From contig NZ_JADKRS010000005.1 in the NCBI RefSeq assembly GCF_015351075.1, positions 189,577-253,576 on the forward strand: a stretch of DNA of 64,000 bases. Reading direction: 5' to 3'. Positions 22,215 to 46,308 of this stretch are shown piece by piece (position 1 is the stretch's first letter; each line of letters starts with the position of its first letter). The DNA is from Clavibacter sp. VKM Ac-2873 (lineage in GTDB: Bacteria; Actinomycetota; Actinomycetes; Actinomycetales; Microbacteriaceae). Below the pieces are notes generated by a model that saw only the letters and a program-made list of their open reading frames with translations, was not told where the DNA came from and made no database searches. Made by a program: the position numbers and the translations under genes.

Positions 22215-23128
22215 TGCTGCACTCGACCCTCACCTCCGCCGCCAAGCGCCGCGCCTTCCGGGAGCGGCTCGCAAGCGGGGAGCTGCTCCGGATGCCCGGC
22301 GCGTTCAACCCGCTGTCGGCCCGCCTCATCCAGGACAAGGGCATGGACGGCGTCTACATCTCCGGCGCCGTGCTCTCCGCGGATCTCGGCCTGCCGGACA
22401 TCGGCCTCACCACCCTCACGGAGGTGGCCGGGCGCTCGCAGCAGATCGCGCGCGTGACGGACCTGCCGTGCCTCGTGGACGCCGACACCGGCTTCGGGGA
22501 GCCGATGAACGTCGCGCGCACCGTGCAGATGCTCGAGGACGCCGGGGTCGCGGGCCTCCACATCGAGGACCAGGTGAACCCCAAGCGCTGCGGGCACCTC
22601 GACGGCAAGCAGGTGGTGGACGAGTCGACCGCGCTGAAGCGGATCCGCGCGGCCGTCGACGCCCGCCGCGACCCCGACCTGCTGGTCATGGCCCGCACCG
22701 ACGTGCGCGGCGTCGACGGCATGGCCGCTGCCGTCGACCGCGCGCGCGCGCTCGTGGACGCCGGCGCCGACGCGATCTTCCCCGAGGCGATGGCCGACCT
22801 CGCCGAGTTCGAGGCGATGCGCGCCGCGGTGGACGTGCCGATGCTCGCCAACATGACCGAGTTCGGGAAGAGCGAGCTGTTCACGACGCAGCAACTCGCC
22901 GACGTGGGCGTCAACATCGTCATCTACCCGGTGTCGCTGCTGCGCCTCGCGATGGGCGCCGCCGAGCGGGGCCTCGACGCGATCCTGGAGGAGGGCACGC
23001 TCGCCGGGAAGGTGCCGGAGATGCAGACCCGCGCGCGCCTCTACGAGCTCCTCGACTACGCGGGCTACAGCGCGTTCGACGAGGACGTCTTCACCTTCAC
23101 GCTGGAGGGGAACCGCGGCGGGGCGTGA
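22214..23128 (+). CDS. prpB: Methylisocitrate lyase
   Basis: 304-aa isocitrate-lyase/PEP-mutase-superfamily enzyme that splits 2-methylisocitrate into pyruvate and succinate. Markers: RMPGAFNPLSARLIQDKGMD, metal-binding DADTGFGE near residue 92, catalytic loop Cys in VNPKRCGHLDGK near residue 123, and ANMTEFGKSELFTTQQL. The KRCGH loop separates it from the PEP mutase at 42146. The GTG start shares a base with the prpD stop (TAGTG). Confidence 0.94.
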   Translation: MLHSTLTSAAKRRAFRERLASGELLRMPGAFNPLSARLIQDKGMDGVYISGAVLSADLGLPDIGLTTLTEVAGRSQQIARVTDLPCLVDADTGFGEPMNVARTVQMLEDAGVAGLHIEDQVNPKRCGHLDGKQVVDESTALKRIRAAVDARRDPDLLVMARTDVRGVDGMAAAVDRARALVDAGADAIFPEAMADLAEFEAMRAAVDVPMLANMTEFGKSELFTTQQLADVGVNIVIYPVSLLRLAMGAAERGLDAILEEGTLAGKVPEMQTRARLYELLDYAGYSAFDEDVFTFTLEGNRGGA

Positions 23129-34027: not shown

Positions 34028-34840
34028 TCAGCGGGAGACCGCGGTGAACGGGATCCCGCTCGGCCAGTCCTCGACCTCGGCGCCCGCCCACGCCTCCAGC
34101 CCGGAGCAGCGTGAGCCGTTGAGGATGAAGCCCTCGGCCCCGCGACGCGCGAACCCCGCGAGCGAGCGCAGCTTGCCGGCCATCCCGCCGCTGGTGTCCG
34201 TCGCGGCCACGCTCGTGCGGAGCGCGAAGCCGGTCGCCTCCCCGGGGGTCATGTGCGCCACGATCCGGCGCTGATCGGGGTCCGCGTCCGCGTAGGCGAG
34301 GTACCCGTCGACGTTGGTGAGCAGGAGCACGCGCCAGGGCCCCTCGAGCGCGTCGATCACCGCCATCGGCACGGCATCGCTGCCGAGGATGCGCACCCCG
34401 CCGCCCGGCGCCAGGACGGCATCGCCCGAGAGCACGGGGAGCACGCCGCCCGCGAGGCAGCGGCGCAGCACGTGGCCGTCGGCGTGGACGCCGCCGGGGC
34501 GCGCGTCGTCGAAGGCGCACCACGCGGACGGCTGGAGCGACATCGCATCCACCCCCAGCGCCCGGAACGCCTCCGTCCACGCCCAGCGCACGCGGAAGGT
34601 CGCCTCGGTGAGGCGCCACGCGGACCACGCGTCGCCGACGTCGATCCCGCGGACGGCGCCGTGCCCGATGGAGCCGCCGCCCGCGACGAACACGACGTGA
34701 CCCGGGTGGCGGCGGTGCAGATCCGCCACGATGCGCGCATACCGCGCGACCGCGCCCAGGTCGAGATCGTCGTCGGTCTGCTTCGTGGAGACCAGGCTGC
34801 CGCCGACCTTGACGATGAGGGTCCTCGTCGACGAGGTCAT
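34028..34840 (-). CDS. Amino-acid-kinase-fold kinase, FomA/isopentenyl phosphate kinase-like
   Basis: 270-aa kinase of the amino acid kinase superfamily. Visible: N-terminal KVGGSLVSTKQ, the phosphate-acceptor loop FVAGGGSIGHG near residues 48-58, TNVDGYLAY in the nucleotide half and DTSGGMAGKLRSL near residue 215. The GGGSxGHG loop with its His is the hallmark of isopentenyl phosphate kinase and the fosfomycin kinase FomA, which phosphorylate a phosphate or phosphonate rather than a carboxylate. In this operon it most likely phosphorylates a phosphonate, for self-protection or activation. Last gene of the operon; its start overlaps the previous stop (ATGA, 34837-34840). Confidence 0.85.
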   Translation of the reverse strand: MTSSTRTLIVKVGGSLVSTKQTDDDLDLGAVARYARIVADLHRRHPGHVVFVAGGGSIGHGAVRGIDVGDAWSAWRLTEATFRVRWAWTEAFRALGVDAMSLQPSAWCAFDDARPGGVHADGHVLRRCLAGGVLPVLSGDAVLAPGGGVRILGSDAVPMAVIDALEGPWRVLLLTNVDGYLAYADADPDQRRIVAHMTPGEATGFALRTSVAATDTSGGMAGKLRSLAGFARRGAEGFILNGSRCSGLEAWAGAEVEDWPSGIPFTAVSR

Positions 34841-35472
34841 GCGGGACGCTCCGTCCGGTCGAGGCACGCGACGATCGCGCGACGGGACGCGTCCGGGTCG
34901 CCCGAGCCGTCCACGACGGACCAGCCGTGGCGCTCCGCCCACGCGTCCATGGTGGTGAGGATCCGCGTCTGGTGCGCCACGAACGCGGCGCGGGAGCACG
35001 ACGGATCCATGCCGCACTCGTAGGGCTCGACCTCGCCGTCCTTCTTGCGCTCCCAGGCCACGTCGGGCGTCACGCGCAGGTACACCACCGTGTCCGCGCG
35101 AGGCAGCCCGGCCACGACCGACTCGATCCACTCCCGGTCCACCCCGTAGGCGATCTCGCTCGCGGCGTGCTTCATCCAGTAGCCGTCGAGGACGGTGATC
35201 GCGCCCGGCTCGGGAGGGCGCGCCTCCAGCGCGTACCCCATGGACCACATGAGGAACAGGAACCGCGAGGCGCGGGGCATCTCCGCCACGCACTGCCGGG
35301 TCTCCTCCACGGAGGCCTGCATGAACCGGGCGGCCGGGTAGCGGTCGTCGCCCACGATGTCCCACCGGCCCACCGTGGTGGCCGCGTCCCCGCGGTCGCG
35401 CAGGAGCTCCGTGGCGAGACGCGTCGCGGTCGACTTCCCGGCGCCGTCGGCGCCGACGACGGCGACGATCAT
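34837..35472 (-). CDS. Thymidylate-kinase-like P-loop kinase
   Basis: 211-aa P-loop NTPase resembling dTMP kinase. Walker A GADGAGKSTATRLATELL at residues 7-24, then LDGYWMKHAASEIAYG (the DR-like region, here DGY), VVYLRVTPDVAWERK and a lid rich in charged and Cys residues. The DR(Y/F) motif of true dTMP kinases is altered, and the housekeeping enzyme would not sit in this operon. It could add a second phosphate to a phosphonate-phosphate, as FomB does after FomA, though it is unrelated to FomB in fold. It overlaps both neighbours by ATGA. Confidence 0.75.
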   Translation of the reverse strand: MIVAVVGADGAGKSTATRLATELLRDRGDAATTVGRWDIVGDDRYPAARFMQASVEETRQCVAEMPRASRFLFLMWSMGYALEARPPEPGAITVLDGYWMKHAASEIAYGVDREWIESVVAGLPRADTVVYLRVTPDVAWERKKDGEVEPYECGMDPSCSRAAFVAHQTRILTTMDAWAERHGWSVVDGSGDPDASRRAIVACLDRTERPA

Positions 35473-36620
35473 GCGCCGACCCCGACGCTCGCGGGGCGCC
35501 CCGCGGTCGCCTGGGCGACGGGCGCCGCGGCGAACAGGCGCTCGGGGAACGGGATGGACCACGTCGCGTCCGCGCGGTCGGCGGTGCGGTACACGTCCAG
35601 GGAGGACGTGTCGGCGGGCCGCGTCGCGTCGAGCACGTGCGGGGGCACGCTCCCCGGATGGAACGCGTCCGCGAAGTGGAGCGCGTGGTGGACGATCCGG
35701 CGCCGTCGCGTCTCCGCCGTGCGCTCGAGCACGTCGTCCCACCCGGCGCCGTCGAGCGCGCCGGCGCTGGCGGTGACGTCGACGAACTTGCCGATGTGCA
35801 TCGCGACGCCGGGCGCCGCGAACGGCGGTCGGGTCGCCTCCGCGTGCAGGTGCACGCACAGGTCGAGCAGCTCATCGGCGGGATCCAGCCGGGACAGCGG
35901 GCGGCCGTCGACCACGCTCGGGCGGGACCTGCCCAGCACCTCGCGCGTGCGGGCCTCCTCGTCGGGCTCGTCCGCGAACACGGAGTGGGCGAGGTCGATG
36001 CGGAGCACCGGCAGGTCGGGCCGGGGACCCGGCCGGAGGTAGGGGAGCGTGCCGGCGGCCCCCGCGGGATCCGGGGAGGGCACGAGGCGATCCCCCTCCC
36101 AGGCGATCGTCCCCCTGACGTAGCCCAGCTCGCGCAGGGCGGCGTCGGTCGCGTCCGCGTCGCCGCGCGCGACGAGGAGGTCGACGTCGGTGACGCGGCG
36201 GGCGCCGATGTCGCCGTAGAGCGACTCGGCGACGGCGAGCCCCTTCTGCAGGGCGTGCGCGACGCCGCGCCGCTCGAGCGCGCGCGTCACGGCCTCCGCC
36301 TCGCCCGCCAGGGCGCGGTTCCGTTCGCGGTTGCCCGCGAGGACCGCGGGGTAGATCCAGGCGGAGGGCACGGCCTGCATGCCGTCGGCGGTGTCGCCGC
36401 GCGCCAGGTGGTGCTCGAGGAGGTGGCGCCCCACGAGGGGCAGGACCTTGTGCTGCGCGGCGCGTTCCAGGAACACCCCCCACCGCACGGAGCCGCCGCG
36501 GATGAGGCGCAGGGCCGCGTCGACGTCCGTCTCGTCCAGGCGGACCCGCGACAGCCCGAGGAGCAGGCGTCGTTCCGGATCCAGGCCGCTCGGTGCGGCA
36601 CGCTCGTCGTGCAGGTGCAT
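35469..36620 (-). CDS. Nucleotidyltransferase family protein (NTP_transf_5 type)
   Basis: 383-aa protein with the pattern of the putative nucleotidyltransferase family found in many natural product clusters. A helical N-terminal part (RRLLLGLSRVRLDETDVDAA) precedes the nucleotidyltransferase core, LQKGLAVAESLYGDIGARRV followed by TDVDLLVARG carrying the two metal-binding Asp residues. Helical C-terminal segments with His/Asp follow (LDLCVHLHAEATRPP, HIGKFVDV). It may transfer a nucleotide to a phosphonate or a kinase product; this is inference. ATG 36620 has a GGAGAGG site. The 89-nt gap upstream is the largest within the operon. Confidence 0.78.
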   Translation of the reverse strand: MHLHDERAAPSGLDPERRLLLGLSRVRLDETDVDAALRLIRGGSVRWGVFLERAAQHKVLPLVGRHLLEHHLARGDTADGMQAVPSAWIYPAVLAGNRERNRALAGEAEAVTRALERRGVAHALQKGLAVAESLYGDIGARRVTDVDLLVARGDADATDAALRELGYVRGTIAWEGDRLVPSPDPAGAAGTLPYLRPGPRPDLPVLRIDLAHSVFADEPDEEARTREVLGRSRPSVVDGRPLSRLDPADELLDLCVHLHAEATRPPFAAPGVAMHIGKFVDVTASAGALDGAGWDDVLERTAETRRRRIVHHALHFADAFHPGSVPPHVLDATRPADTSSLDVYRTADRADATWSIPFPERLFAAAPVAQATAGRPASVGVGA

Positions 36621-36709
36621 GGTGGTCGACCTCTCCGTGGTGGTGTCGGGACGCGGGTCCCCGTGGTCCGTCGAGCGGGCGGGGTGGATGAGGGGCGCGG
36701 GTCGGTCCG

Positions 36710-37807
36710 TCACCAGGACCGCCGCAGGATCGCGAGCATCGCGTCGGGGCCGCCGTGCGCGCCCGGGTCGTTCTCGACGCTGCCCGTGACGGCGGCGACC
36801 AGGCGCGGCAGGTCGTCGGCCGACACCCCGGTGTCGCGGAGCCGCAGCCGCAGATCGAGGCCGTCGCGCAGCCGGTCGACGGTCTCCGCGGTCGCACCCG
36901 CGCCGCCGAGGGCGTCGTCGGTCCGGCGCAGCGCATCGGGGGCGAGGGCGCCGAGGTGCTGGATCCACGCCGGGTACAGCAGCGCGAGCCCGGCGCCGTG
37001 CGGCAGCTCGATCCCCACGGCGCCCATCGCCTGCTGGAGTCGGTGCGGGAACCCGGTGCTCGCCGTGGCGACGCTGAGCCCGCCGAACAGGGCGGCCTCC
37101 GCCAGCCGGTGGCGGTCCCGCCGATCCGGGCTCAGCTCGAGCTCGGCGGCCATCCGCTGCAGGGCCGTGGTGGCGAAGACGTCCGACACGGGGCTGCGGC
37201 GGCGGGCGACGAGGCCCTCGATCCCGTGGGCCACCGCGTCGAAGCCCGTGGCGGCCGCCGTGCGGTCGTCGACGCCCGCGAGCAGCTCCGGGTCGACGAG
37301 CGCGATGCGCGGCCGCACCGCATCCCCGCGGATCGCGACCTTGCCGCCGCCGTGGTCGTCGCCGAGGAGCGCGCCGGTGGTGACCTCGGCGCCGCTCCCG
37401 GCCGTGGTCGGCACCGCGATCACGGGGATCCGCCGCTCGACGGCCGCGCCGACCAGCCGCGCCACGCCGCCACCGCCCGCGGCGACGCCGCACGCCTTCG
37501 CGACGTCGAGCACGCTGCCGCCGCCGATCCCGATGATCACGTCGGCGCGGGCGTCCTCGACGACGCGCAGCACGCTCTCCGCGTCGCGCACGCGCGGCTC
37601 CGGCGGCACGATGTCCGCGACGGTCACGTCGACCCCGGCGCGCCGGAGGCTCGCGACGGCGCGTGCCGTCACCCCCGAGCGCCGCATCGCGTGCCGGCCG
37701 GTGACCAGCACGGCGCGCGTGCCGAACCCCGCGGCCAGCGCGCCGAGGTCGTCGAGGCCGCCGTCGCCGAGCACGATCCTCGTGTCGAGCCGGATGTCAC
37801 AGAGCAT
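36710..37807 (-). CDS. Iron-containing (group III) alcohol dehydrogenase
   Basis: 365-aa Fe-ADH. NAD-binding GIGGGSVLDVAK near residue 96, TTAGSGAEVT near 142, and metal ligands in FDAVAHGIEG (Asp, His), TGFPHRLQQAMG and LPHGAGLALLYP (His). Related enzymes in phosphonate pathways reduce phosphonoacetaldehyde. Here the expected aldehyde is 2-hydroxy-3-phosphonopropanal (phosphonolactaldehyde), giving 2,3-dihydroxypropylphosphonate. The start overlaps the end of the PGK-like gene by 11 nt. Confidence 0.87.
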   Translation of the reverse strand: MLCDIRLDTRIVLGDGGLDDLGALAAGFGTRAVLVTGRHAMRRSGVTARAVASLRRAGVDVTVADIVPPEPRVRDAESVLRVVEDARADVIIGIGGGSVLDVAKACGVAAGGGGVARLVGAAVERRIPVIAVPTTAGSGAEVTTGALLGDDHGGGKVAIRGDAVRPRIALVDPELLAGVDDRTAAATGFDAVAHGIEGLVARRRSPVSDVFATTALQRMAAELELSPDRRDRHRLAEAALFGGLSVATASTGFPHRLQQAMGAVGIELPHGAGLALLYPAWIQHLGALAPDALRRTDDALGGAGATAETVDRLRDGLDLRLRLRDTGVSADDLPRLVAAVTGSVENDPGAHGGPDAMLAILRRSW

Positions 37808-38975
37808 GGGTCCTCCTCGGCGGGGGGAGCGGGCGGCGGGTCCGCAGCGCGTCCAGCGCGGCGGCGGATCCGGTGGCGATGAGCGTGAGGGCCGACCCGC
37901 CACCGGACGACCGGCGGGCGACGGCAGCGGGGAGGTCGTGCACGGTGTCGCCGCCGAGCAGCAGGGCGGTGGCGCGGGGATCCGCGCAGCACCGCTCGAC
38001 CGCGCGGGCCGCCACGCGATGCCCCTCGTGCGCGGCGCTCGGGGTGCCCGCGACCAGCATGCGCGTCGGCGCGTCGAGCGGTCCGAGCGCGGCGGTCGGG
38101 AACTCGAAGTCCACGATGCGCTCTCCCGGGTGCACGGGCGCGCCGACGGCGATCCGCCGCACCGCCCCGTCCCGGCCGGCGACGATCAGCCGCGCGGGCA
38201 GCACGAGCCGGTGGGCGGACGGGCCCGCGAGCACGGAGCGGGCGGCGGCCAGCGCGCGGGCGGGCCGTTCCCCCATCGAGGAGTCGCCGATGTCCATCCC
38301 CGCCGCACGGAGGACGGCGTTGAGCACGGTGCCGGCCGGGACCACGCGCTCGTAGTGGCGCACGAGGCGGGGGAGGCCGATCTCGGCCTTCTCCGTCTTC
38401 CTGCCGCCGAGCACGGCGAGCGAGCGCCCCTCCGGTCGGGTCCAGCCGTCGAGCTCGCCGACCGCCCGCTCGACGGACGAGGCCAGGTACGCGGGCAGGT
38501 GGCGGAGGATCGCGTCGTTCGACGCGTGCGCCCGGTGCAGCTTCGAGAACCCGCCGAGGACGAGCGCGTCCCCGAGCCGCGCGAAGGCGCGCCCGAGCGC
38601 GGGGTCGTCCCGTTCCTCCCCGGCGTGATGGCGCGTGTTCCCGAACACGACCACCTCGCCCGGGCGCATCGTGCGCGCGCGCCTCCGGGCCGGGGGCGTC
38701 GCGTTCTCCGGGAAGTAGTCCACGCGGCGGCCGAGGCGCGATCCCAGGTACCGGGCGACGTGGTCCAGGTGCGTCGCGGATCCGTCGCCGTGCGTCCCCT
38801 GGTGGCTGAGCACCGCGACGCGCGCGCCCCGCCCGGCCATCATGGCCAGGTCGTCGAGCTCCTCGTCGATGCGCTCGGTGCTCGCGAGGCGCGCGTCGAC
38901 GTTGAAGCCCGCCGAGAGGATCCACCTGTCCCCGGCCCGGATGCGCGCCGTGCGGATCGACGCCACCCCGCGCAC
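37797..38975 (-). CDS. Phosphoglycerate kinase paralogue (probable phosphonolactate kinase)
   Basis: 392-aa PGK-fold protein. Landmarks: WILSAGFNVDARLAS (PGK has VRVDFNVP), VAVLSHQGTHGDGS (SHLGRP), VVFGNTRHHAGEERDDPALG (LLLENLRFHKGEE), FSKLHRAHASNDAI (THRAHAS), VLGGRKTEKAEIGL (GGAKVSDKI), LLLGGDTVHDL and RRSSGGGSALTLI. Substrate-site residues equivalent to Asn26, Arg39, His63, Arg123 and Arg171 appear kept, but Asp24 and Arg66 are replaced (Gly and Thr). This is as expected for an altered acceptor such as phosphonolactate, the shortened analogue of 3-phosphoglycerate. GTG 38975 lies 2 nt after the previous stop; GTG 38966 is an alternative. Not the housekeeping enzyme. Confidence 0.85.
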   Translation of the reverse strand: MRGVASIRTARIRAGDRWILSAGFNVDARLASTERIDEELDDLAMMAGRGARVAVLSHQGTHGDGSATHLDHVARYLGSRLGRRVDYFPENATPPARRRARTMRPGEVVVFGNTRHHAGEERDDPALGRAFARLGDALVLGGFSKLHRAHASNDAILRHLPAYLASSVERAVGELDGWTRPEGRSLAVLGGRKTEKAEIGLPRLVRHYERVVPAGTVLNAVLRAAGMDIGDSSMGERPARALAAARSVLAGPSAHRLVLPARLIVAGRDGAVRRIAVGAPVHPGERIVDFEFPTAALGPLDAPTRMLVAGTPSAAHEGHRVAARAVERCCADPRATALLLGGDTVHDLPAAVARRSSGGGSALTLIATGSAAALDALRTRRPLPPPRRTHAL

Positions 38976-38977
38976 GC

Positions 38978-40054
38978 TCAGAACCCCCGCATCGCGAGCC
39001 CGGCCCGCTCCGGCAGGCGCAGGGACACGTTCATGTTCTGGATCGCCGAGCCCGCCGCGCCCTTGACGAGGTTGTCGGTGACGCCCACGAGCCGCACCAC
39101 GCCCGCCGCGCCGTCGACGTCGGCCCCGAGGAAGCACCGGTTGGTGCCCACCACGTGCCGGAGGTTCGGGTAGACGTCGTACTGCTTGGCGTTCTTCACC
39201 GCGTCGTGCGTGCGCCGGTTGACGTGCACGAACGCGGCGTCGCGCTCCCGGTAGAACGCGGCCAGGCACTCGAGCACGTCGTCGCGGCCGGCGCCGTCCC
39301 GCAGCACCGCGCTCGCCTGCAGGTGGATCCCGCGGGGGAAGTCGCCGTGCGCGGTCGTGAGGTCGATGTCCGGCGAGGAGCCGACGATCCGCGTGATCAC
39401 CTCGTGGATCTCCGGCGCGTGCCGGTGCCCGTCGAGGTTGTACGGCAGCAGCGCTCCCGCCATCTCGGTCACGGACAGCGGCCGCCGGGCCTCGATCCCG
39501 GCTCCGCTCGTGCCGTTCACGGCGAAGACCGCCACCCGCTGGGAGGTGTCGACGAGCCCCGCGGCGTGGAGCGGCGTGAGGGCCAGGAGCGCGGTGAGGG
39601 CGTAGCAGCCGGGGTTGGCGATGAGGGCGGCGTCGCGGATCCGGTCGCGGAACACCTCCGTGAACCCGTAGACCGCGCGGGGCAGGAGCCCGGGCGCGGT
39701 GTGCGGCTTCCCGTGCGCCTCCTCGAAGGACCGCGCGGTCGCGAAGCGGAAGTCGGCGCTGAGGTCCACGACCCGCACCCCGGCGTCGAGCAGCGCGGGT
39801 GCCAGGCGCATGGCCTCGCCCGTGGGGGTGCAGAGGAACGCCACGTCGAGCTCGTCCAGGTGGTCGAGGAGCTCGTCGACGCGGAGGGAGCGCACGCCGC
39901 TGCCGTCGAGGGCCGCGTTGGTCTGCTCGATGTCCGCCCCGCTCCGGGACGCGGCCCGGATCTCCCCGACGTGCGGGTGCTCGAGCAGCAGGCGGCAGAG
40001 CTCCGCGCCCGCGTACCCGGTCGCGCCGACGACGCCGACGACGAGGTCGTTCAT
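38978..40054 (-). CDS. ArgC-like acyl-phosphate reductase (probable phosphonolactyl-phosphate reductase)
   Basis: 358-aa homologue of N-acetyl-gamma-glutamyl-phosphate reductase. NADP loop VGVVGATGYAGAELCRLL, catalytic Cys in ANPGCYALTALLAL near residue 152, and catalytic His region GHRHAPEIHEVI. It sits between a PGK-like kinase and two alcohol dehydrogenases rather than with arg genes, so it most likely reduces the acyl-phosphate made by the kinase to phosphonolactaldehyde. A role in arginine synthesis cannot be excluded by sequence alone, but no argB/J/D is present. Start overlaps the Zn-ADH stop (ATGA, 40051-40054). Confidence 0.86.
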   Translation of the reverse strand: MNDLVVGVVGATGYAGAELCRLLLEHPHVGEIRAASRSGADIEQTNAALDGSGVRSLRVDELLDHLDELDVAFLCTPTGEAMRLAPALLDAGVRVVDLSADFRFATARSFEEAHGKPHTAPGLLPRAVYGFTEVFRDRIRDAALIANPGCYALTALLALTPLHAAGLVDTSQRVAVFAVNGTSGAGIEARRPLSVTEMAGALLPYNLDGHRHAPEIHEVITRIVGSSPDIDLTTAHGDFPRGIHLQASAVLRDGAGRDDVLECLAAFYRERDAAFVHVNRRTHDAVKNAKQYDVYPNLRHVVGTNRCFLGADVDGAAGVVRLVGVTDNLVKGAAGSAIQNMNVSLRLPERAGLAMRGF

Positions 40055-41085
40055 GATGCGCTCCCCTCGACGATGATCTTCCCCAGGTCGTCGCCCCCGC
40101 CGTCCATGAGCGCGAACGCGTCCGGTGCCGCCGCGAGGGCGAAGCGATGGCTGATGAGGGTGCCGGGTTCGACGAGGCCGGCCTCCCACCACGCGATGAC
40201 GGCGGCGACGTCGCGCCGGGTGCTGAGCGCGGATCCGCGGATGGCGATCTCCTTCGACACGGCGTCGTTCGCGTGGAGCACCTGCGCGTCGGGGAAGTAG
40301 CTGACCACGATCACGGTGCCTCCCGGCCGCGTGAGCCGCACCGCGTCGTCGAGCACGCCCGGGTAGGCGGTCGCGACGACCACCACGTCGTGCTCGACGA
40401 CGTCCTCGTCGGGCAGCTCCCGGACGGCCGCCTGCCGGACGTCGACGAACGCGTCGCCTCCCGTGGCGATGAAACGGTCCCGCTTCCCGTCGCCGCGGTC
40501 GATCCCGCGGATGGACGCCGCACCCGCGGCCCGGGCGGCGATGACGCAGCCGAGCCCGATGGTCCCGCAGCCGATGACGCAGACGGATCGCCCGTCGAGC
40601 ACCGCCAGCGCCGCCGCGTGCGCCGAGATGGCCAGCGGCTCGATGAGCACCACGGCATCGCTCGGCATGCGCGGCGGCACCACGCACACCATGGACGCGC
40701 GGAGGACCACCTCCTCGGCGAGCGTGCCGCCGAGCCGGCCGGCGCTGAGGTTCTCGCGATCGGAGCAGAGGTGCGGGTCCCCGCGACGGCAGGCGGCGCA
40801 GCGGAGGCAGGGCGCGTAGGCGAAGGTGGCGACCCGGTCGCCCGGCCGCACGTCGCGCACCCCGGTGCCCACCTCGGTGACGGTCCCGGCGAGCTCGTGG
40901 CCCAGCACGGCGGGCGGGCGCTTGTAGGGGTGGTGCCCTCGGTACGCGGCGAGGTCGGATCCGCAGATGCCGGAGCTGATGACCCGCACGCGCACGTCGT
41001 CCGCTCCGAGCGTCCCCGCGGGCGCGGTCTCGACCTGCACGTCCCGCTCCGCCCGGAGAACGGCGCTGACGACGGCGGCGCTCAT
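40051..41085 (-). CDS. Zinc-dependent medium-chain dehydrogenase
   Basis: 344-aa sorbitol/threonine-dehydrogenase-like enzyme. Catalytic zinc in SSGICGSDLAAYRG and GHELAGTVTEVG, structural zinc in CLRCAACRRGDPHLC, NAD loop VIGCGTIGLGCVIAARAAGA. With an Fe-ADH also in the operon there are two candidate aldehyde/alcohol enzymes. One may reduce phosphonolactaldehyde. This one, by its sorbitol-dehydrogenase-like character, could oxidise the secondary alcohol of dihydroxypropylphosphonate to a ketone suitable for transamination. Coupled to both neighbours by ATGA overlaps. Confidence 0.87.
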   Translation of the reverse strand: MSAAVVSAVLRAERDVQVETAPAGTLGADDVRVRVISSGICGSDLAAYRGHHPYKRPPAVLGHELAGTVTEVGTGVRDVRPGDRVATFAYAPCLRCAACRRGDPHLCSDRENLSAGRLGGTLAEEVVLRASMVCVVPPRMPSDAVVLIEPLAISAHAAALAVLDGRSVCVIGCGTIGLGCVIAARAAGAASIRGIDRGDGKRDRFIATGGDAFVDVRQAAVRELPDEDVVEHDVVVVATAYPGVLDDAVRLTRPGGTVIVVSYFPDAQVLHANDAVSKEIAIRGSALSTRRDVAAVIAWWEAGLVEPGTLISHRFALAAAPDAFALMDGGGDDLGKIIVEGSAS

Positions 41086-42089
41086 GCGACCCGTCCCTCG
41101 AGCGTCGCGTCGCCGCGCGCGACCCCGGCGAGGATCGACGCGACCACACGTCCCACCCGCTCCTGCGCCTCGGCGGTCATCCCGCCGATGTGCGGGGTGA
41201 GCACCACGTCGTCCCGGCCGGCGAGCGGGCTCGTCCCGCGGCCCTCGACCTCGTGCACGTCCGTGGCGGCCCCGGCCAGGTGACCGGACGCGAGGGCGTC
41301 CGCGAGCGCCCGCTCGTCGACGATGCCGCCGCGCGACACGTTCACGAGGTACGCCCCCGCGGGCATCCGCTCGAGGAACGCCGCGTCGACGACGCCCCGC
41401 GTGTCGTCGTCCAGGGGCAGCGCCAGGAAGAGCAGGTCGGCACGTCGCGCCACCTCGTCGCGGGCGACCAGCTCGACGCCCTCGGCCGCGAGCTCGGCGC
41501 GCCGCGCGTCGCTGGGGGAGCGGACGCCGGCGACCACCCGGGCGCCGAGGGCCGACGCGATGGCCCCGATCCGGGACCCGATGGCCCCGAACCCGAGCAC
41601 GCCGACGGTCGAGCCGGCGATCTCGGTCCCCATCAGCTCGTGCTTGCACCAGCTGCCGACGCGGAGCTGGCGGTCGGCGAGGGCCACGTGGCGCATGGTG
41701 CCGATCGCCAGGCCGACGGCCAGCTCGGCCACGGCGTTCGCGGATCCGCCGGGCACGGAGCAGACCGGCACGCCCTGCGCGGACGCGGCCGCGAGGTCGA
41801 TGTTGTCGAGGCCGGCGCCCGCCCGGATGACCGCCCGGAGCCGGGGCGCCGCGCGCATCATCTCCGCGGTCAGCGCGGCGCCGCTGCGGAGGATGACGAC
41901 GTCCGCCTCCGCGAGATCCGCGGCCTCGGCCGGTCCGCTCGCGCCGTAGCGCTCCACGAAGCGGCTGCCGGCCGGAGCGGCCGTGCGCACGACCGGGTGC
42001 ACGGGATCCAGCAGCAGGATCGTGAGCTCGGGGAGGTGCGGCGCGGCGTCGCCCGTGGGGGATCCGGCGCGCGTTCCCGTGTCGGTCAT
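41082..42089 (-). CDS. D-2-hydroxyacid dehydrogenase (probable phosphonopyruvate reductase)
   Basis: 335-aa member of the D-isomer 2-hydroxyacid dehydrogenase family. NAD loop VGVLGFGAIGSRIGAIASAL, catalytic residues in NVSRGGIVDE (Arg), TDVHEVEG (Glu) and LTPHIGG (His). It lies directly after PEP mutase, the position of a coupling enzyme that pulls the unfavourable mutase reaction forward. The expected reaction is reduction of phosphonopyruvate to phosphonolactate, as described for VlpB in valinophos biosynthesis. PGDH-like activity on a phosphate ester is the alternative. Confidence 0.87.
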   Translation of the reverse strand: MTDTGTRAGSPTGDAAPHLPELTILLLDPVHPVVRTAAPAGSRFVERYGASGPAEAADLAEADVVILRSGAALTAEMMRAAPRLRAVIRAGAGLDNIDLAAASAQGVPVCSVPGGSANAVAELAVGLAIGTMRHVALADRQLRVGSWCKHELMGTEIAGSTVGVLGFGAIGSRIGAIASALGARVVAGVRSPSDARRAELAAEGVELVARDEVARRADLLFLALPLDDDTRGVVDAAFLERMPAGAYLVNVSRGGIVDERALADALASGHLAGAATDVHEVEGRGTSPLAGRDDVVLTPHIGGMTAEAQERVGRVVASILAGVARGDATLEGRVA

Positions 42090-42145
42090 GGTGGTGCTCC
42101 CTCTCGTTCGTCGTGTTCGGCGGGCGTCGTCCGGGACGCCCCTGC

Positions 42146-43009
42146 TCAGGACCGGGTGAGCTCCTGCCACTGGCTGAGGTCCTGGATGTCGAACACCTGC
42201 TGGACGGAGGCGATGTCGCTCTCGAGCGAGAGGCTGGATCCCTCCCGGAGGATGGTCGCGAAGGTGCCCTCCATCGCCCGGACGGAGGATCGGAGCCCCT
42301 GGTTGGCGTAGATGACGGCGGAGGCGCCGGCCTCGCTGATCGCGTCGACCTGCCAGTCCGGGTACGTCGTCGGCACGATCACCACGGGCGCGGCCCCGCC
42401 CCACTGGCGGAGGAAGCTCTCGATCTCGCCGCGCTCCCGCGACTTCGAGTGGGCCAGCACCGCGTCGGCGCCCGCGGCGACGTAGGCGGCGCACCGCTCG
42501 AGCGCCTCGTCCACGCCGAGCCCCGCGATCATCGCCTCGGTGCGGGCGATGACGTAGAAGTCGTCGCTGTCCTGGGCGCTCTTGGCGGTGTCGATCTTGT
42601 CCGAGAACTCCTGCACGGTGAGCAGCGCGTGGTGCGCGTCGGCGAACGAGTTCATCTTCGGGTGGTGCTTGTCCTCGATCGCGACCGCGGTGATCCCGGC
42701 GCGCTCGTAGCGGTGCACCATGTGGGCGACGTTGAGGTTGTTCCCGTAGCCGGTGTCGCAGTCCGCGACGACGGGGATCCCGATGGCCGACTGGATGTTC
42801 TGGGCCGCCTCGAGGTACTCGGCCATGGACAGGAGGCTCGCGTCCGGCAGCGCGCGGGATGCGGAGACCTCGAAGCTCGACGACCAGACGGCGTCGAAGC
42901 CGGCGCCCTCGGCGAGCTTGCCGCCGAGGCCGTCGTGCACGCCCGCGATGCGGACGATGGGCTTCTCGGCCATGAGCCGACGGAAGCTGGGATGCGAGTT
43001 GCTCTTCAT
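42146..43009 (-). CDS. pepM: Phosphoenolpyruvate mutase (PEP phosphonomutase)
   Basis: 287-aa isocitrate-lyase-superfamily enzyme carrying the diagnostic PEP mutase motif EDK-x5-NS as EDKHHPKMNS (residues 112-121), rather than the KxCGH loop of lyases. Also present: metal site DCDTGYGN (83-90), N-terminal AGVHDGLGGKLAEGAGFDAV and later ARTEAMIAGLG. It converts PEP to phosphonopyruvate, forming the C-P bond, the committed step of nearly all phosphonate biosynthesis. The spacing from the upstream flavoprotein gene is 27 nt. This gene defines the surrounding operon as a phosphonate cluster. Confidence 0.96.
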   Translation of the reverse strand: MKSNSHPSFRRLMAEKPIVRIAGVHDGLGGKLAEGAGFDAVWSSSFEVSASRALPDASLLSMAEYLEAAQNIQSAIGIPVVADCDTGYGNNLNVAHMVHRYERAGITAVAIEDKHHPKMNSFADAHHALLTVQEFSDKIDTAKSAQDSDDFYVIARTEAMIAGLGVDEALERCAAYVAAGADAVLAHSKSRERGEIESFLRQWGGAAPVVIVPTTYPDWQVDAISEAGASAVIYANQGLRSSVRAMEGTFATILREGSSLSLESDIASVQQVFDIQDLSQWQELTRS

Positions 43010-43036
43010 GGGTGTCTCTCTTCTTCTCTCAGTGCT

Positions 43037-45193
43037 CTATGCGGACAGGAGTTCGTGCTCGAGATGCTCGATCCAGGTGAGGATGTCCTGCATCAGGTGG
43101 TGGTTCTGCTGGGGGCGCAGGGCCCCCAGCTGGAAGAACATGACGCCCTCGCTGGGCGGCCCGAGGAACGTCAGCCGACGGTCGGCCTCGCCCGAGGCGG
43201 TGAGCGGGTGGAAGTCCGGCGAGAGGTCGAGGCCTCCCGGGCGGTAGGGCGTCCCCTCGGGGGAGGGGTTCTCCCACATGCGGACGAGGCCGCGATCGAG
43301 GAGGGACGCGTAGAGCGGGGACACGTCGGCCTCCGCGTCGAACGGGTGGACGCGCGCGTCCACCAGGACGTCGGCGGGGAAGCGGGCCCCCGTGCGCGGA
43401 CCCACGACCGTGAAGCCGCCGTCGTCGCCGAGGATCCGCCCGCCCGGTCCCGTGCTCATGTCGATGATCCCGGCGTGGATGAGGGCGAGCATCTTCTCCA
43501 TCACCTCCAGCGCGGCGCCGTTCGCCAGGCGGTTGTGGTGGCGCATGACGGACTCGATGAAGTCGCGGTGCGACTCCGCCGTCAGGCCGCCGAAGTCGAC
43601 GGCGTGCCCGAGCACCGGGCGCAGATCCCGCCAGACGCCGTCGGCCGCGGCCTTCGAGGGGTTGAGCAGGTTGCCCTGGGCGGCCGCCAGGTGGTCCCGC
43701 TCCATGAAGTCGATCACCGCGGCCGTGTACGCGGCGGGATCGGTGGCCGACGCGTCGGGGACGGGCCGGATGGCCTCCTCCCACGAGAAGCGGTGCTCGA
43801 CCGGGTGGATGGGGTGCCGCCAGGGGCTGGGCGCGCCGGCCAGGTAGGCGGCCCGGTTCGCCGCGGCGTCGTCGCGGGGGTCCTCGGGGCTCCCGCCGAC
43901 GCCGTAGACGACCCGCAGGAACCGCTCGGCCGCCTCGTCCACGTCCCAGGGGACGCCGACGGGCGCGGCGGGATCCCGGTCGAGGTGCGCCTGGAGGTGC
44001 TCCGCGACGGACGCGGCGGCCTCGTCGACGGTGCGTCCGAGCGCCTCGGCCGTCTCCGGCCCCGGGGCCGCGAGGAACTGCCGGAACACCGGCTCCAGGA
44101 CGGCGCGGAGGTGCGCGGCGACGGAGGGGCCGAAGAGCGTCGCGTGATGGAGGTAGGCCATCTCGAGCGTCACCAGCGGGAACAGGTGCGCCTGGAAGTC
44201 GAGCTGCCGGACGGTGCCGGCCCCGACGCGCACGGGGATCCCGGCCGACTCGCGGAGGGCGTCGACGGCGTCCTCGGCGAGGAACCGGCCCCGGTGCTCG
44301 TAGCGCGGCAGGTCCACCTGCTTGGCGTTGAACGGCCGCGCGAACGTGAACAGCCCCGCCCCCGACACCATCGCGATGCGGGCGGGCTCGTCGCCGCTCG
44401 GCCGGTACCGGAGCGATCCGTCCTCCTGGCGGGTGAAGGCGCCGCCGCGCCCCTCGGAGAGGTACAGCGCCACGTCGATGGCCGTGAGCCCGGCGCCCGA
44501 GCAGGCGACGACGGCTCCCGGCGGGACGGCGTCGCGCGTGAGGGTGGCCTCCAGCGGGTAGGCGTAGCGCACGAACGTGCGGCCGGATGCGTCCGCGGCG
44601 TCGGCCCAGACGGCCTGCCGCGGGTACTTCTCGGGCTTGTTGACCGAGTGGCCGGTCACGAAGAGCACCTGGTCGGCGGCGATCCGGGCCCCGGAGGCGC
44701 AGTGCAGCTCCAGGCGCCGTCCGAGGTCGTCGATGTCGACCACCTCGTCCTCGTGCAGCTCCAGGTGCACGCCCGGGATGTCCCGGAGGTGCTGCACGTA
44801 CCGGTCGAACTGCGCGGCCAGGGCCATGCCGTGCATGAAGCGCTTCGGCCAGTCCTCCGCGCGCAGGTTGAATCGCTCGTCGCCCGTCCGCCGGTATTCC
44901 TGCTGGCACCATTCATGCAATGTCGGGCGTTCGGATTCACCGAGCAGATCGCCCGCGCCGACGACGGTCTCGTCGGCTGCGAAGGACACCTGGCCGACGA
45001 TGCGATTCAGGAAGCTCGTCTGCGGCTGCCGTGCGCTGTGCACGGCGCCGGCGCCGAATTCCCCGGTCTTCTCGAATACGTGGATCTCCAGATCCACCGC
45101 GCTCGCATCGGAGCGCAGGAGGCTCACCAGCCGCTCCAGGACATATGTGCTGCTCGGACCGCCGCCGACGATCGCGAGCACTCCGCGGTTCAT
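43037..45193 (-). CDS. Large FAD/NAD(P)-binding protein (NAD_binding_9 type)
   Basis: 718-aa flavoprotein. The N-terminal Rossmann loop is LAIVGGGPSSTYVLERLVSL, with ARQPQTSFLNRIVGQVSFAA and LHEWCQQEYRR following, and VVACSGAGLTAIDVALYL as a second nucleotide site near residue 235. It resembles the HcaD/FAD-NAD(P)-binding family found in some natural product and siderophore clusters. The C-terminal 250 residues (MRHHNRLANGAALEVMEKML, QLGALRPQQNHHLMQDILTW) are less familiar. It may hydroxylate or oxidise an amine on a phosphonate intermediate; no known function can be assigned. It overlaps the aminotransferase stop by ATGA. Confidence 0.8.
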   Translation of the reverse strand: MNRGVLAIVGGGPSSTYVLERLVSLLRSDASAVDLEIHVFEKTGEFGAGAVHSARQPQTSFLNRIVGQVSFAADETVVGAGDLLGESERPTLHEWCQQEYRRTGDERFNLRAEDWPKRFMHGMALAAQFDRYVQHLRDIPGVHLELHEDEVVDIDDLGRRLELHCASGARIAADQVLFVTGHSVNKPEKYPRQAVWADAADASGRTFVRYAYPLEATLTRDAVPPGAVVACSGAGLTAIDVALYLSEGRGGAFTRQEDGSLRYRPSGDEPARIAMVSGAGLFTFARPFNAKQVDLPRYEHRGRFLAEDAVDALRESAGIPVRVGAGTVRQLDFQAHLFPLVTLEMAYLHHATLFGPSVAAHLRAVLEPVFRQFLAAPGPETAEALGRTVDEAAASVAEHLQAHLDRDPAAPVGVPWDVDEAAERFLRVVYGVGGSPEDPRDDAAANRAAYLAGAPSPWRHPIHPVEHRFSWEEAIRPVPDASATDPAAYTAAVIDFMERDHLAAAQGNLLNPSKAAADGVWRDLRPVLGHAVDFGGLTAESHRDFIESVMRHHNRLANGAALEVMEKMLALIHAGIIDMSTGPGGRILGDDGGFTVVGPRTGARFPADVLVDARVHPFDAEADVSPLYASLLDRGLVRMWENPSPEGTPYRPGGLDLSPDFHPLTASGEADRRLTFLGPPSEGVMFFQLGALRPQQNHHLMQDILTWIEHLEHELLSA

Positions 45194-46308
45194 GCGTCCA
45201 CCGTGGCGCGCAGCTCGACGAGCGATTCATCGAAAGCTCCCAGGAATCCCGTGATGTCGGTTTCCCGCAGCTGCCCCATGGTCGAGAGCCGCACGTACTC
45301 GCCGACCTTCTGCGGCACCCCGTAGATGGTGTATCCGCGACGCTTGAGCGCGTCGTGCAGCTCCTCGTACGTGACGCCGTCGGGCAGGGCGACGTTCGTG
45401 ACGCTCCTGGCCCGGTCGCGGGGGTCGAGCGCGATCCCGAGACCGCGCTCCGTCATCCCGTCGCGGATGATCCCGGCGAGCGACTCGTAGCGCGCGCCGC
45501 GCGCCGCCACGCCCTCGTCGAGCGCCATCGCCAGCGCGACGTCCAGCGCGTAGAGCACCTGGACGGCCGGCGTGAACAGCGGAGCGTCGTCCTCCTGCGC
45601 CAGGTGGTGGCGGTGGAGGTCGAGGTAGAGGGTGCGGGGCGGGTGCCCGGCGATCGCGTCGAGCGCTGCCCGGCGGGCGACCACGAAGCTCACTCCCGGC
45701 AGGCCCTCGACGCACTTGTTCGCGGTGCCGACGCACCAGTCGACGTGGTCGTCGACCACGCTCAGGTCCTCGGCGCCCAGGCTCGAGATCGCGTCCACGA
45801 TCAGCGAACGGCCGAGGGAGTGGACGATCTCGCCCACCCCGTGCAGCGGGTTCATCATGCCGGTGCTGGTCTCGTGGTGGATCATCGCGACGTGCGTCAG
45901 GTCCTCGTCCGTGATGAGCGCGTCGCGGACCGCGTCGAGCTCGATGTGCTCGCCCCAGCCGAACTCGAGGTGCGTGGCGGGGATGCCGTGGGCGGCGAGC
46001 ACCTTGGCGATCCGCTCGCCGTAGTTGCCGTTGTCGAGCACGAGGACGCGCTTGCCGGGAGCGACGACGCTGCTGAGCGTGGCCTCCAGGGCGGCCGTCC
46101 CCGACCCCGTGACGACGACGCTCGTGAAGCGGGAGTCGCCTCCCGCGAGCCGGGTGGCGGATGCGCGGACGTTGCGCAGGAGGTCGGCGACCTCGACCTC
46201 GCGGTGGCAGGCGTCCGGGTAGGTCATGGCCTCGCGGACGGCCGGATGCACGTTCACGGGGCCGGGATTGAGCAGGATGGATCTGCTCGGCGGGGATACG
46301 GCGGGCAT
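45190..46308 (-). CDS. PhnW-like class V aminotransferase
   Basis: 372-aa PLP enzyme close to 2-aminoethylphosphonate:pyruvate aminotransferase. It opens ILLNPGPVNVHPAVREAM, then SGTAALEATLSSVV, HHETSTGMMNPLHGVGEI, IVDAISSLGAEDL and the PLP-Lys segment GTANKCVEGLPGVSFV near residue 193. PhnW acts on a C2 phosphonoaldehyde. With no phosphonopyruvate decarboxylase here, the substrate is more likely phosphonolactaldehyde, a keto-phosphonate derived from dihydroxypropylphosphonate, or phosphonopyruvate itself. First gene of the operon, with GGAGGA before the ATG and a promoter about 190 nt upstream. Confidence 0.88.
   Translation of the reverse strand: MPAVSPPSRSILLNPGPVNVHPAVREAMTYPDACHREVEVADLLRNVRASATRLAGGDSRFTSVVVTGSGTAALEATLSSVVAPGKRVLVLDNGNYGERIAKVLAAHGIPATHLEFGWGEHIELDAVRDALITDEDLTHVAMIHHETSTGMMNPLHGVGEIVHSLGRSLIVDAISSLGAEDLSVVDDHVDWCVGTANKCVEGLPGVSFVVARRAALDAIAGHPPRTLYLDLHRHHLAQEDDAPLFTPAVQVLYALDVALAMALDEGVAARGARYESLAGIIRDGMTERGLGIALDPRDRARSVTNVALPDGVTYEELHDALKRRGYTIYGVPQKVGEYVRLSTMGQLRETDITGFLGAFDESLVELRATVDA

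What the first reader, a model, noticed from the sequence alone, without database searches (positions are those of the whole stretch)
34028..46308. Eleven-gene phosphonate biosynthesis operon with a glycolysis-like core
PepM at 42146 carries the exact EDK-x5-NS motif. No phosphonopyruvate decarboxylase is present. Instead a D-2-hydroxyacid dehydrogenase, a PGK paralogue and an ArgC-like reductase sit in sequence with two alcohol dehydrogenases. Established knowledge: valinophos biosynthesis reduces phosphonopyruvate to phosphonolactate, then uses a kinase and reductase resembling glycolysis and arginine enzymes to reach 2,3-dihydroxypropylphosphonate. Inference: this operon makes the same core. 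The remaining genes (PhnW-like aminotransferase, 718-aa flavoprotein, nucleotidyltransferase, two kinases) point to a different, possibly aminated or oxidised end product. Nearly all genes overlap by ATGA.
Basis: partly seen in the sequence, partly recalled or inferred. Interest (0 to 1): 0.95.

Follow-up and report, generated by a model that had tools for sequence, protein, structure and literature searches.

The report
Predicted N-oxidised phosphonate antibiotic operon
A bacterium carries an eleven-gene operon that most likely builds a small carbon-phosphorus compound, adds an amine and then oxidises that nitrogen, possibly giving a natural version of a known laboratory inhibitor of the glycolysis enzyme enolase.

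Summary
The operon is real. Eleven minus-strand genes (46308-34028) encode PepM with EDK-x5-NS, no phosphonopyruvate decarboxylase, and a 2-hydroxyacid dehydrogenase/PGK-like/ArgC-like/Fe-ADH set. Only 5 of 10 junctions are ATGA. The PGK- and ArgC-like genes are dedicated paralogues: canonical copies lie elsewhere in the genome. Best reading: PEP to phosphonolactate, 2,3-dihydroxypropylphosphonate, 3-hydroxy-2-oxopropylphosphonate, 2-amino-3-hydroxypropylphosphonate, then N-oxidation to oxime or nitro. The nitro compound, (3-hydroxy-2-nitropropyl)phosphonate, is recalled as a synthetic tight-binding enolase inhibitor. The core is strongly supported by homology; amination site, oxidation level and target are inferred. 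A new variant of a known kind.

The parts
45190..46308 (-). g1: PhnW/AepZ-like class-V aminotransferase, 372 aa; proposed to aminate 3-hydroxy-2-oxopropylphosphonate
   Evidence: PF00266; TIGR03301 339.6 bits vs cut-off 360.8; upstream of the g2 homologue in most relatives
43037..45193 (-). g2: FAD N-monooxygenase-like protein, 718 aa; proposed N-oxidation of the aminophosphonate
   Evidence: PF13454; PDB 8cp2 L-Asp N-hydroxylase E=5.6e-39; residue mapping
42146..43009 (-). g3: PEP mutase (PepM), 287 aa, EDK-x5-NS
   Evidence: PF13714 184 bits, TIGR02320 281.7 bits; motif
41082..42089 (-). g4: D-2-hydroxyacid dehydrogenase, 335 aa; phosphonopyruvate to phosphonolactate
   Evidence: PF02826, PF00389; in vlp-like L059 and fused in ftx-like L058
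40051..41085 (-). g5: Zn-dependent MDR dehydrogenase, 344 aa; proposed DHPPA C2 oxidation
   Evidence: PF08240, PF00107; 41-47% to three sister copies and the ftx-like copy, 31% to an unrelated MDR; no match in vlp-like L059
38978..40054 (-). g6: ArgC-like reductase, 358 aa; acyl phosphate to aldehyde
   Evidence: TIGR01850 301 bits; 48-56% to cluster copies, 35% to own ArgC
37797..38975 (-). g7: PGK-like kinase, 392 aa; phosphonolactate to acyl phosphate
   Evidence: PF00162 131 bits vs 485 bits for the housekeeping PGK; A4 alignment; homologue fused to Fe-ADH in L014
36710..37807 (-). g8: iron-containing alcohol dehydrogenase, 365 aa; aldehyde to DHPPA
   Evidence: PF00465; present in the vlp-like and ftx-like clusters
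35469..36620 (-). g9: PF14907 nucleotidyltransferase-family protein, 383 aa; role unknown
   Evidence: PF14907 120 bits; a GTG start at 36713 is also possible
34837..35472 (-). g10: thymidylate-kinase-like P-loop kinase, 211 aa; homologue next to g2 homologue also where no intact PepM is in the stretch
   Evidence: PF02223 21.4 bits, below its cut-off of 27; NF005923 32.9 bits vs 193; beside g2 homologues in L011, L022, L024
34028..34840 (-). g11: FomA-like kinase, 270 aa; proposed masking or self-protection
   Evidence: PDB 3d40 FomA E=3.5e-42; homologue fused to the g1 homologue in L014 and L026

Best explanation
This is a phosphonate natural-product operon. Steps 1-5, strongly supported by homology but not assayed: PepM makes phosphonopyruvate; g4 reduces it to phosphonolactate, pulling the unfavourable mutase reaction; PGK-like g7 makes the acyl phosphate; ArgC-like g6 reduces it to phosphonolactaldehyde; Fe-ADH g8 reduces that to 2,3-dihydroxypropylphosphonate (DHPPA). 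Steps 6-8, inferred: Zn-dehydrogenase g5 oxidises C2 to 3-hydroxy-2-oxopropylphosphonate; PhnW-like g1 transaminates the ketone to 2-amino-3-hydroxypropylphosphonate; flavoenzyme g2 N-oxidises the amine to the oxime and perhaps to (3-hydroxy-2-nitropropyl)phosphonate. That nitro compound has the skeleton of 2-phosphoglycerate with nitro for carboxylate and CH2-P for O-P, so its likely target is enolase. FomA-like g11, with g9 and g10, may mask or activate the phosphonate by phosphoryl or nucleotidyl transfer; this last part is a guess.
For: Core: families; dedicated paralogues with canonical PGK and ArgC elsewhere. Every uncut locus seen with g1, g2, g6 and g7 homologues also has g3, g4, g5 and g8: 12 of 12 counting the window (L014, L016+L057, L018, L020, L021, L023, L025, L033, L052, L098, L099). 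Fe-ADH belongs to the pathway: an in-frame PGK-Fe-ADH fusion in L014. g5 as C2 oxidase: no g5 in valinophos-like L059, g5 in ftx-like L058/L060 with split transketolase and acetolactate-synthase-like enzyme; g5 copies group together. g2: E=5.6e-39 to the L-Asp N-hydroxylase 8cp2, which makes nitrosuccinate by successive oxidations; its Asn62 and four Arg are kept, four other residues of the arginine-rich substrate site differ; the kept ones are invariant in 15 of 15 homologues. Enolase was picked as a test after the nitro product had been derived (literature search precedes): a second enolase lies in Umezawaea L025 (next to a PNPOx gene of a family seen in 8 loci, one gene from Fe-ADH), in Actinokineospora L046 and in Saccharothrix L104: 3 of 48 g2-family neighbourhoods, 0.14-0.43 expected, rough P 0.0004-0.01.
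Against: PhnW-type aminotransferases are best known on an aldehyde, so g1 might use phosphonolactaldehyde directly. No column (85% threshold) separates core-type from decarboxylase-type g1 or g2. Only 1 of 12 core clusters has an enolase in its stretch; L046 and L104 are a different cluster type without PepM in the stretch; the window genome has a single enolase, on another contig. Two full enolase matches were found in 3 of 9 other core-type genomes tested and in 1 of 7 decarboxylase-type genomes, no clear difference. The cluster enolases belong to a second-enolase group that in S. acidiscabies and S. californicus lies on another contig than the cluster. Only one vlp-like and one ftx-like cluster were available, both identified by content. 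g9 and g10 have no assigned step. The P value is rough: loci are related and not a random sample.
Confidence: 0.5

Rival explanations
1. g1 aminates phosphonolactaldehyde directly to 3-amino-2-hydroxypropylphosphonate, and g2 N-oxidises it to an N-hydroxy, aldoxime or nitro compound, a three-carbon analogue of hydroxynitrilaphos/phosphonocystoximate or of the antibiotic FR-33289 (recalled).
For: g1 is closest to 2-aminoethylphosphonate aminotransferases, which act on an aldehyde. g1-g2 homologues also occur in clusters with TPP-enzyme genes and no core, where the expected substrate is phosphonoacetaldehyde (Pfam on representatives from L030 and L041). PcxL's substrate is 2-aminoethylphosphonate (passage in PMC10404684).
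Against: Leaves g5 and g8 without a role although both are in 12 of 12 uncut clusters; the PGK-Fe-ADH fusion argues that the aldehyde is reduced.
Confidence: 0.25
2. The operon makes a phosphonate head group for a cell-surface glycan or lipid, with g9, g10 and g11 as the nucleotidyl- and phosphoryl-transfer steps.
For: NTP_transf_5 and two kinases in the operon; a glycosyltransferase in sister locus L052.
Against: No glycosyltransferase or lipid enzyme named among the eleven; several sister clusters carry MFS transporters, amino-acid ligases or an NRPS module; g11 is FomA-like.
Confidence: 0.1
3. The product is DHPPA or a simple derivative, and g2 acts on an unrelated amine such as aspartate to supply a nitro or nitrous group.
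For: g2 is kin to aspartate N-hydroxylases.
Against: Four of the five residues that bind aspartate in 8cp2 are changed; no nitrosuccinate lyase among the eleven; g1 lies just upstream of g2 in most relatives.
Confidence: 0.08
4. PepM is inactive and the genes are ordinary glycolysis or arginine paralogues.
For: PepM scores below the TIGR02320 cut-off; g6 scores above the ArgC cut-off.
Against: EDK-x5-NS intact here and in 38 of 38 relatives checked; canonical PGK and ArgC are elsewhere in the genome.
Confidence: 0.02

Closest known systems
Valinophos (vlp) pathway, Streptomyces durhamensis
   Same: PepM coupled to a dehydrogenase, then kinase, reductase and dehydrogenase to DHPPA; vlp-like locus L059 has the same g4, g6, g7, g8 families. 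The pathway itself is recalled (paper not held); VlpF valine esterification was seen as a passage in PMC12723261.
   Different: The window adds g5, g1, g2, g9, g10 and g11 and has no ATP-grasp ligase.
Phosphonothrixin (ftx) pathway
   Same: DHPPA core plus a Zn-MDR dehydrogenase, as in ftx-like L058/L060; from the recalled abstract, DHPPA is oxidised to 3-hydroxy-2-oxopropylphosphonate.
   Different: The window has no transketolase or acetolactate-synthase-like enzyme; it has an aminotransferase and an N-monooxygenase-like protein instead.
Hydroxynitrilaphos / phosphonocystoximate (hpx/pcx) pathways
   Same: Amination followed by a flavin N-oxidase acting on an aminophosphonate (PcxL and its substrate seen in PMC10404684 passages; the rest recalled).
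   Different: Those are expected (recalled) to start from phosphonoacetaldehyde; the window has no decarboxylase. Whether g2 is orthologous to PcxL/HpxL could not be tested.
L-aspartate N-hydroxylases (FzmM, CreE, PDB 8cp2)
   Same: Sequence homology in both halves; catalytic Asn and four Arg kept.
   Different: R13, R276, N413 and R416 equivalents are S, E, P and G; no nitrosuccinate lyase among the eleven genes.
FomA fosfomycin kinase
   Same: E=3.5e-42; the Lys of KVGGS, the GHG motif and a C-terminal Lys are kept.
   Different: 152 bits against the FomA model cut-off of 550; substrate unknown.

Membership tests
PepM-dependent phosphonate cluster | PepM with EDK-x5-NS | tested here: met
   but TIGR02320 281.7 bits is below its cut-off of 319.55
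DHPPA pathway (valinophos type) | Dehydrogenase, PGK-like kinase, ArgC-like reductase and Fe-ADH beside PepM, no decarboxylase | tested here: met
   gene content only, no activity
Valinophos cluster | ATP-grasp ligase that esterifies DHPPA with valine | tested here: not met
   none of the 11 proteins matches an ATP-grasp family
Valinophos cluster | Direct similarity to named Vlp proteins | not testable with these tools
   S. durhamensis not among the loci; paper not held
Phosphonothrixin cluster | Heterodimeric TPP ketotransferase and acetolactate-synthase-like enzyme | tested here: not met
   absent from the 11 genes; present in L058/L060
Phosphonothrixin cluster | Dehydrogenase oxidising DHPPA at C2 | tested here: inconclusive
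   g5 groups with the ftx-like MDR of L058; activity untested
Phosphonocystoximate / hydroxynitrilaphos cluster | Phosphonopyruvate decarboxylase supplying phosphonoacetaldehyde | tested here: not met
Phosphonocystoximate / hydroxynitrilaphos cluster | PcxL/HpxL-type N-oxidase | not testable with these tools
   PcxL sequence not available; PMC10404684 lists 17% identity between PcxL and the 8cp2 enzyme
L-aspartate N-hydroxylase | FAD/NADPH N-monooxygenase homology with catalytic Asn | tested here: met
L-aspartate N-hydroxylase | Aspartate-site residues R13, R276, N413, R416, R577 | tested here: not met
   only R577 kept; the alignment is distant
FomA kinase | Score above the FomA model cut-off | tested here: not met
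   152.4 vs 550 bits

The most novel reading that the evidence does not exclude
The operon, like about a dozen sister clusters in other actinobacteria, makes (3-hydroxy-2-nitropropyl)phosphonate or a masked form of it: a natural nitronate mimic of the enolase intermediate, built by a phosphonate copy of glycolysis-like steps into a 2-phosphoglycerate look-alike. Some producers protect themselves with a second enolase, others by a FomA-like kinase.
Probability: 0.28. Interest if true: 0.88.

Novelty: new variant of a known kind. Interest (0 to 1): 0.74.

Why it matters
It joins two known kinds of pathway module, the DHPPA core and an aminotransferase/N-monooxygenase pair, in one recurring cluster type for which I found no described product in the library searched (most subscription papers are not held). 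It names a concrete product, each enzyme's substrate and a target, all testable with standard assays. If right, a classic synthetic enolase inhibitor (recalled) also exists in nature, and the cluster-borne second enolase could be tested as a resistance determinant. It also warns that automatic annotation would call g6 an arginine enzyme (above the ArgC cut-off).

Tried and rejected
PepM as query: 1 of 249 family genomes (the own) at E<=1e-60, 2 of 396 phylum genomes (own included) at E<=1e-50; plasmids gave 71 records, and the four neighbourhoods I opened (L006-L009) have no g6 or g7 match. PGK-like single protein at E<=1e-45: only the own genome of 394 class genomes; nothing in viral contigs. 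The PGK alignment at E<=1e-70 found 3 of 392 genomes of G430's genus (taken as Streptomyces because one hit is the contig of named L016) and 1 of 155 in another family sample, the L052 genome itself. The g2 alignment found 11 of 390 genomes in the family of the Umezawaea genome. Pantoea papers, seen as passages, do not describe the Pantoea cluster's genes. A residue signature separating core-type from decarboxylase-type g1 or g2 was sought; none. metG beside the operon as a duplicated resistance gene: rejected, only copy over the cut-off. Enolase in the window: none. The first gene caller gave long antisense ORFs and was replaced by a codon-usage caller, which still misses some genes (for example the PGK of L021, found by tblastn). 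Structure predictions for g2 and g9 had not finished at the last collection and are not used.
Full report
WHAT IS THERE. Between 46308 and 34028 on the minus strand lie eleven genes: g1 aminotransferase, g2 FAD protein, g3 PepM, g4 2-hydroxyacid dehydrogenase, g5 Zn-MDR dehydrogenase, g6 ArgC-like, g7 PGK-like, g8 Fe-ADH, g9 NTP_transf_5, g10 TMPK-like, g11 AA_kinase/FomA-like. PepM has EDKHHPKMNS, the only such motif in six frames of the window. Of ten junctions, five are ATGA overlaps, one an 11-nt overlap, and four are gaps of 2, 27, 56 and 89 nt. No phosphonopyruvate decarboxylase over the cut-off exists in the genome. A TetR-like gene converges on the 3' end; a citrate-synthase-like gene (named by eye, not by a model) and metG, the only copy over the cut-off, lie upstream on the other strand.

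THE CORE IS DEDICATED. The genome has a canonical PGK (485 bits) and ArgC (349 bits) elsewhere. By tblastn, g7 is 45-53% identical to PGK-like proteins of other clusters but 31% to its own PGK; g6 is 48-56% against 35%. Against T. maritima PGK, g7 keeps the Asn, Arg, His, Arg and Arg of the 3-phosphoglycerate site (site recalled), but the Asp is Gly (invariant in six cluster PGKs) and the Arg of SHLGRP is Thr, consistent with a changed substrate. Among 249 sampled genomes of the family only this one has a PepM match at E<=1e-60, so the operon is rare there and was probably acquired.

SISTER CLUSTERS. An alignment of g2 with two plasmid homologues was used for the one named-genome scan: 40 loci. 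With the two plasmid loci and six further ones (stretches), I looked at 48 distinct g2-family neighbourhoods (L011, L012, L014-L053, L097-L099, L102-L104). Every uncut locus with g1, g2, g6 and g7 homologues also has g3, g4, g5 and g8: L014, L016 (with L057, same contig), L018, L020, L021, L023, L025, L033, L052, L098, L099 and the window, 12 of 12. Four of the 12 hold all eleven genes (window, L016+L057, L023, L098). L015, L017, L029, L051 and L097 are cut by the stretch or contig end and were not counted. PepM is more distant (36-40%) in L018, L021, L029, L033 and L051. Other loci have g1, g2 and PepM homologues with TPP-enzyme genes instead of the core: one family pair in 11 loci, another family in 9 (Pfam run only on representatives from L030 and L041). 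In the g1 tree (38 rows) the non-core sequences form two clean clades, apart from cut locus L097, which falls among core sequences; 3 label changes against 12.4 in shuffles; in the g2 tree (48 rows) 6 against 13. No residue column separates the types at the 85% threshold used. All 39 PepM rows checked (window plus 38 loci) have EDK-x5-NS.

WHICH STEP EACH DEHYDROGENASE DOES. One Streptomyces cluster (L059) has PepM, g4, g6, g7, g8 and an L-amino-acid-ligase ATP-grasp but no g5, g1 or g2: valinophos-like. An MDR about 10 kb away in that genome is only distantly related. Another (L058/L060) has g4 (fused to an AMP-binding domain), g5, g6, g7, g8, PepM, a split transketolase and an acetolactate-synthase-like enzyme, with no g1 or g2 match: phosphonothrixin-like. 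I recall from the abstract of Bown et al. 2023 (not held; its citation seen in PMC12723261 and PMC12268802) that phosphonothrixin is made by oxidising DHPPA to 3-hydroxy-2-oxopropylphosphonate followed by TPP chemistry. By subtraction g5 is the C2 dehydrogenase; this rests on one cluster of each kind. g5 is 41-47% identical to three sister copies and the L058 copy and about 31% to the unrelated MDR. In L014 PGK and Fe-ADH are one 800-codon ORF without internal stops, and in L014 and L026 the FomA-like kinase and the aminotransferase are fused, tying those pairs functionally.

THE FLAVOPROTEIN. g2 matches one PDB sequence, 8cp2/8cp5, E=5.6e-39: L-aspartate N-hydroxylase, which oxidises an amine in successive rounds to nitrosuccinate (PMC10404684, abstract and passages). 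Mapped through the HMMER alignment, Asn62 and Arg266, 409, 412 and 577 are kept; Arg13, Arg276, Asn413 and Arg416 are Ser, Glu, Pro and Gly. The kept ones are invariant in 15 of 15 homologues aligned. So g2 is an N-oxygenase relative with a different substrate site. The same paper names PcxL as using 2-aminoethylphosphonate; its relation to g2 could not be tested.

THE PRODUCT AND TARGET. Transaminating 3-hydroxy-2-oxopropylphosphonate and oxidising the amine gives 3-hydroxy-2-(hydroxyimino)propylphosphonate and then (3-hydroxy-2-nitropropyl)phosphonate. I recall the latter as a tight-binding enolase inhibitor of Anderson, Weiss and Cleland 1984 (the reference, not the compound, was seen in PMC6651268). 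Enolase was therefore sought in 17 genomes and in all 48 neighbourhoods. Umezawaea tangerina has a second enolase in the cluster stretch (L025 248-1573), co-directional with and next to a PNPOx-family gene of a kind seen in 8 loci, one gene from Fe-ADH. Another enolase is inside the g2-family cluster of Actinokineospora (L046), and the second enolase of Saccharothrix lies about 3.5 kb from a second g2-family gene (L104). That is 3 of 48 neighbourhoods; 0.14-0.43 expected by chance, rough P 0.0004-0.01 by assumption. The three are 83-86% identical and belong to a second-enolase group that in S. acidiscabies and S. californicus is on another contig than the cluster. Against: only 1 of 12 core clusters has it; L046 and L104 have no PepM in the stretch; two full enolase matches occur in 3 of 9 other core-type genomes tested and 1 of 7 decarboxylase-type ones, no clear difference; the window genome has one enolase, on another contig.

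WHAT IS SHOWN AND WHAT IS NOT. Shown: gene content, homology, recurrence, fusions, co-location. Inferred: every reaction. The DHPPA core I hold at about 0.9; N-oxidation of an aminophosphonate by g2 about 0.75; amination at C2 rather than C3 about 0.6; nitro rather than oxime or N-hydroxy about 0.45 given that; enolase as target about 0.4. Roles of g9 and g10 are unknown; g10 homologues accompany g2 homologues even where no intact PepM is in the stretch (L011, L022, L024).

PRIOR ART AND PAPERS SEEN. Related clusters are known in outline: PMC12723261 reports that Streptomyces sp. I6, the strain of L017, has two phosphonate clusters, and mentions the hydroxynitrilaphos and phosphonocystoximate families (passages). 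In the held library I found no report of a natural nitropropyl- or 2-amino-3-hydroxypropyl-phosphonate (one synthetic-chemistry paper listed in 121). Seen as passages only: PMC10404684 (with abstract), PMC12723261, PMC12268802, PMC13302981, PMC6651268, PMC6863902, PMC7347517, PMC7744662, PMC11350110; PMC12871164 outline, abstract and passages; PMC12857756 held no match in the part stored. Not seen: the valinophos, phosphonothrixin and PcxL papers (recalled).

Noticed in passing
L012, L047 (Pantoea), L046 (Actinokineospora), L104 (Saccharothrix), L048: A second cluster type around a g2-family gene, no PepM match in the stretches. Amidase is in all five; a 409-420-aa protein without Pfam match (62-63% between Pantoea and the two actinobacteria), an alkaline-phosphatase-superfamily protein and an M28 peptidase are in four (not L048). 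L046 and L104 also carry an enolase and NDK-like genes. Possibly another route to an enolase inhibitor.
   Followed up: partly
L014 671-3070 (-) and 7922-9937 (+); L026 8001-9968 (+): In-frame fusions PGK-like/Fe-ADH and FomA-like/aminotransferase.
   Followed up: yes
L011, L022, L024: TMPK-like and g2-family genes paired in Streptomyces without an intact PepM in the stretch; L022 has only a 33-aa PepM fragment match just upstream.
   Followed up: no
L058/L060/L061 (G1215): Phosphonothrixin-like core (split transketolase, acetolactate-synthase-like enzyme, AMP-binding/2-hydroxyacid-dehydrogenase fusion) beside a condensation-domain gene and several very large uncharacterised genes, perhaps an NRPS-linked phosphonate.
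   Followed up: partly
L030 and similar loci (L026-L028, L031, L032, L036, L037, L043, L050); L015-L017: PALP, ornithine-cyclodeaminase-like, AMP-binding and small carrier-protein genes near g1-g2 (families, Pfam on L030 and L015 representatives), reminiscent of diaminopropionate supply and activation (recalled); not every locus shows all four.
   Followed up: no
window 22220-23125 (+): A second PEP-mutase-superfamily gene in the window is an ordinary methylisocitrate lyase (TIGR02317 394 bits, above its cut-off).
   Followed up: yes
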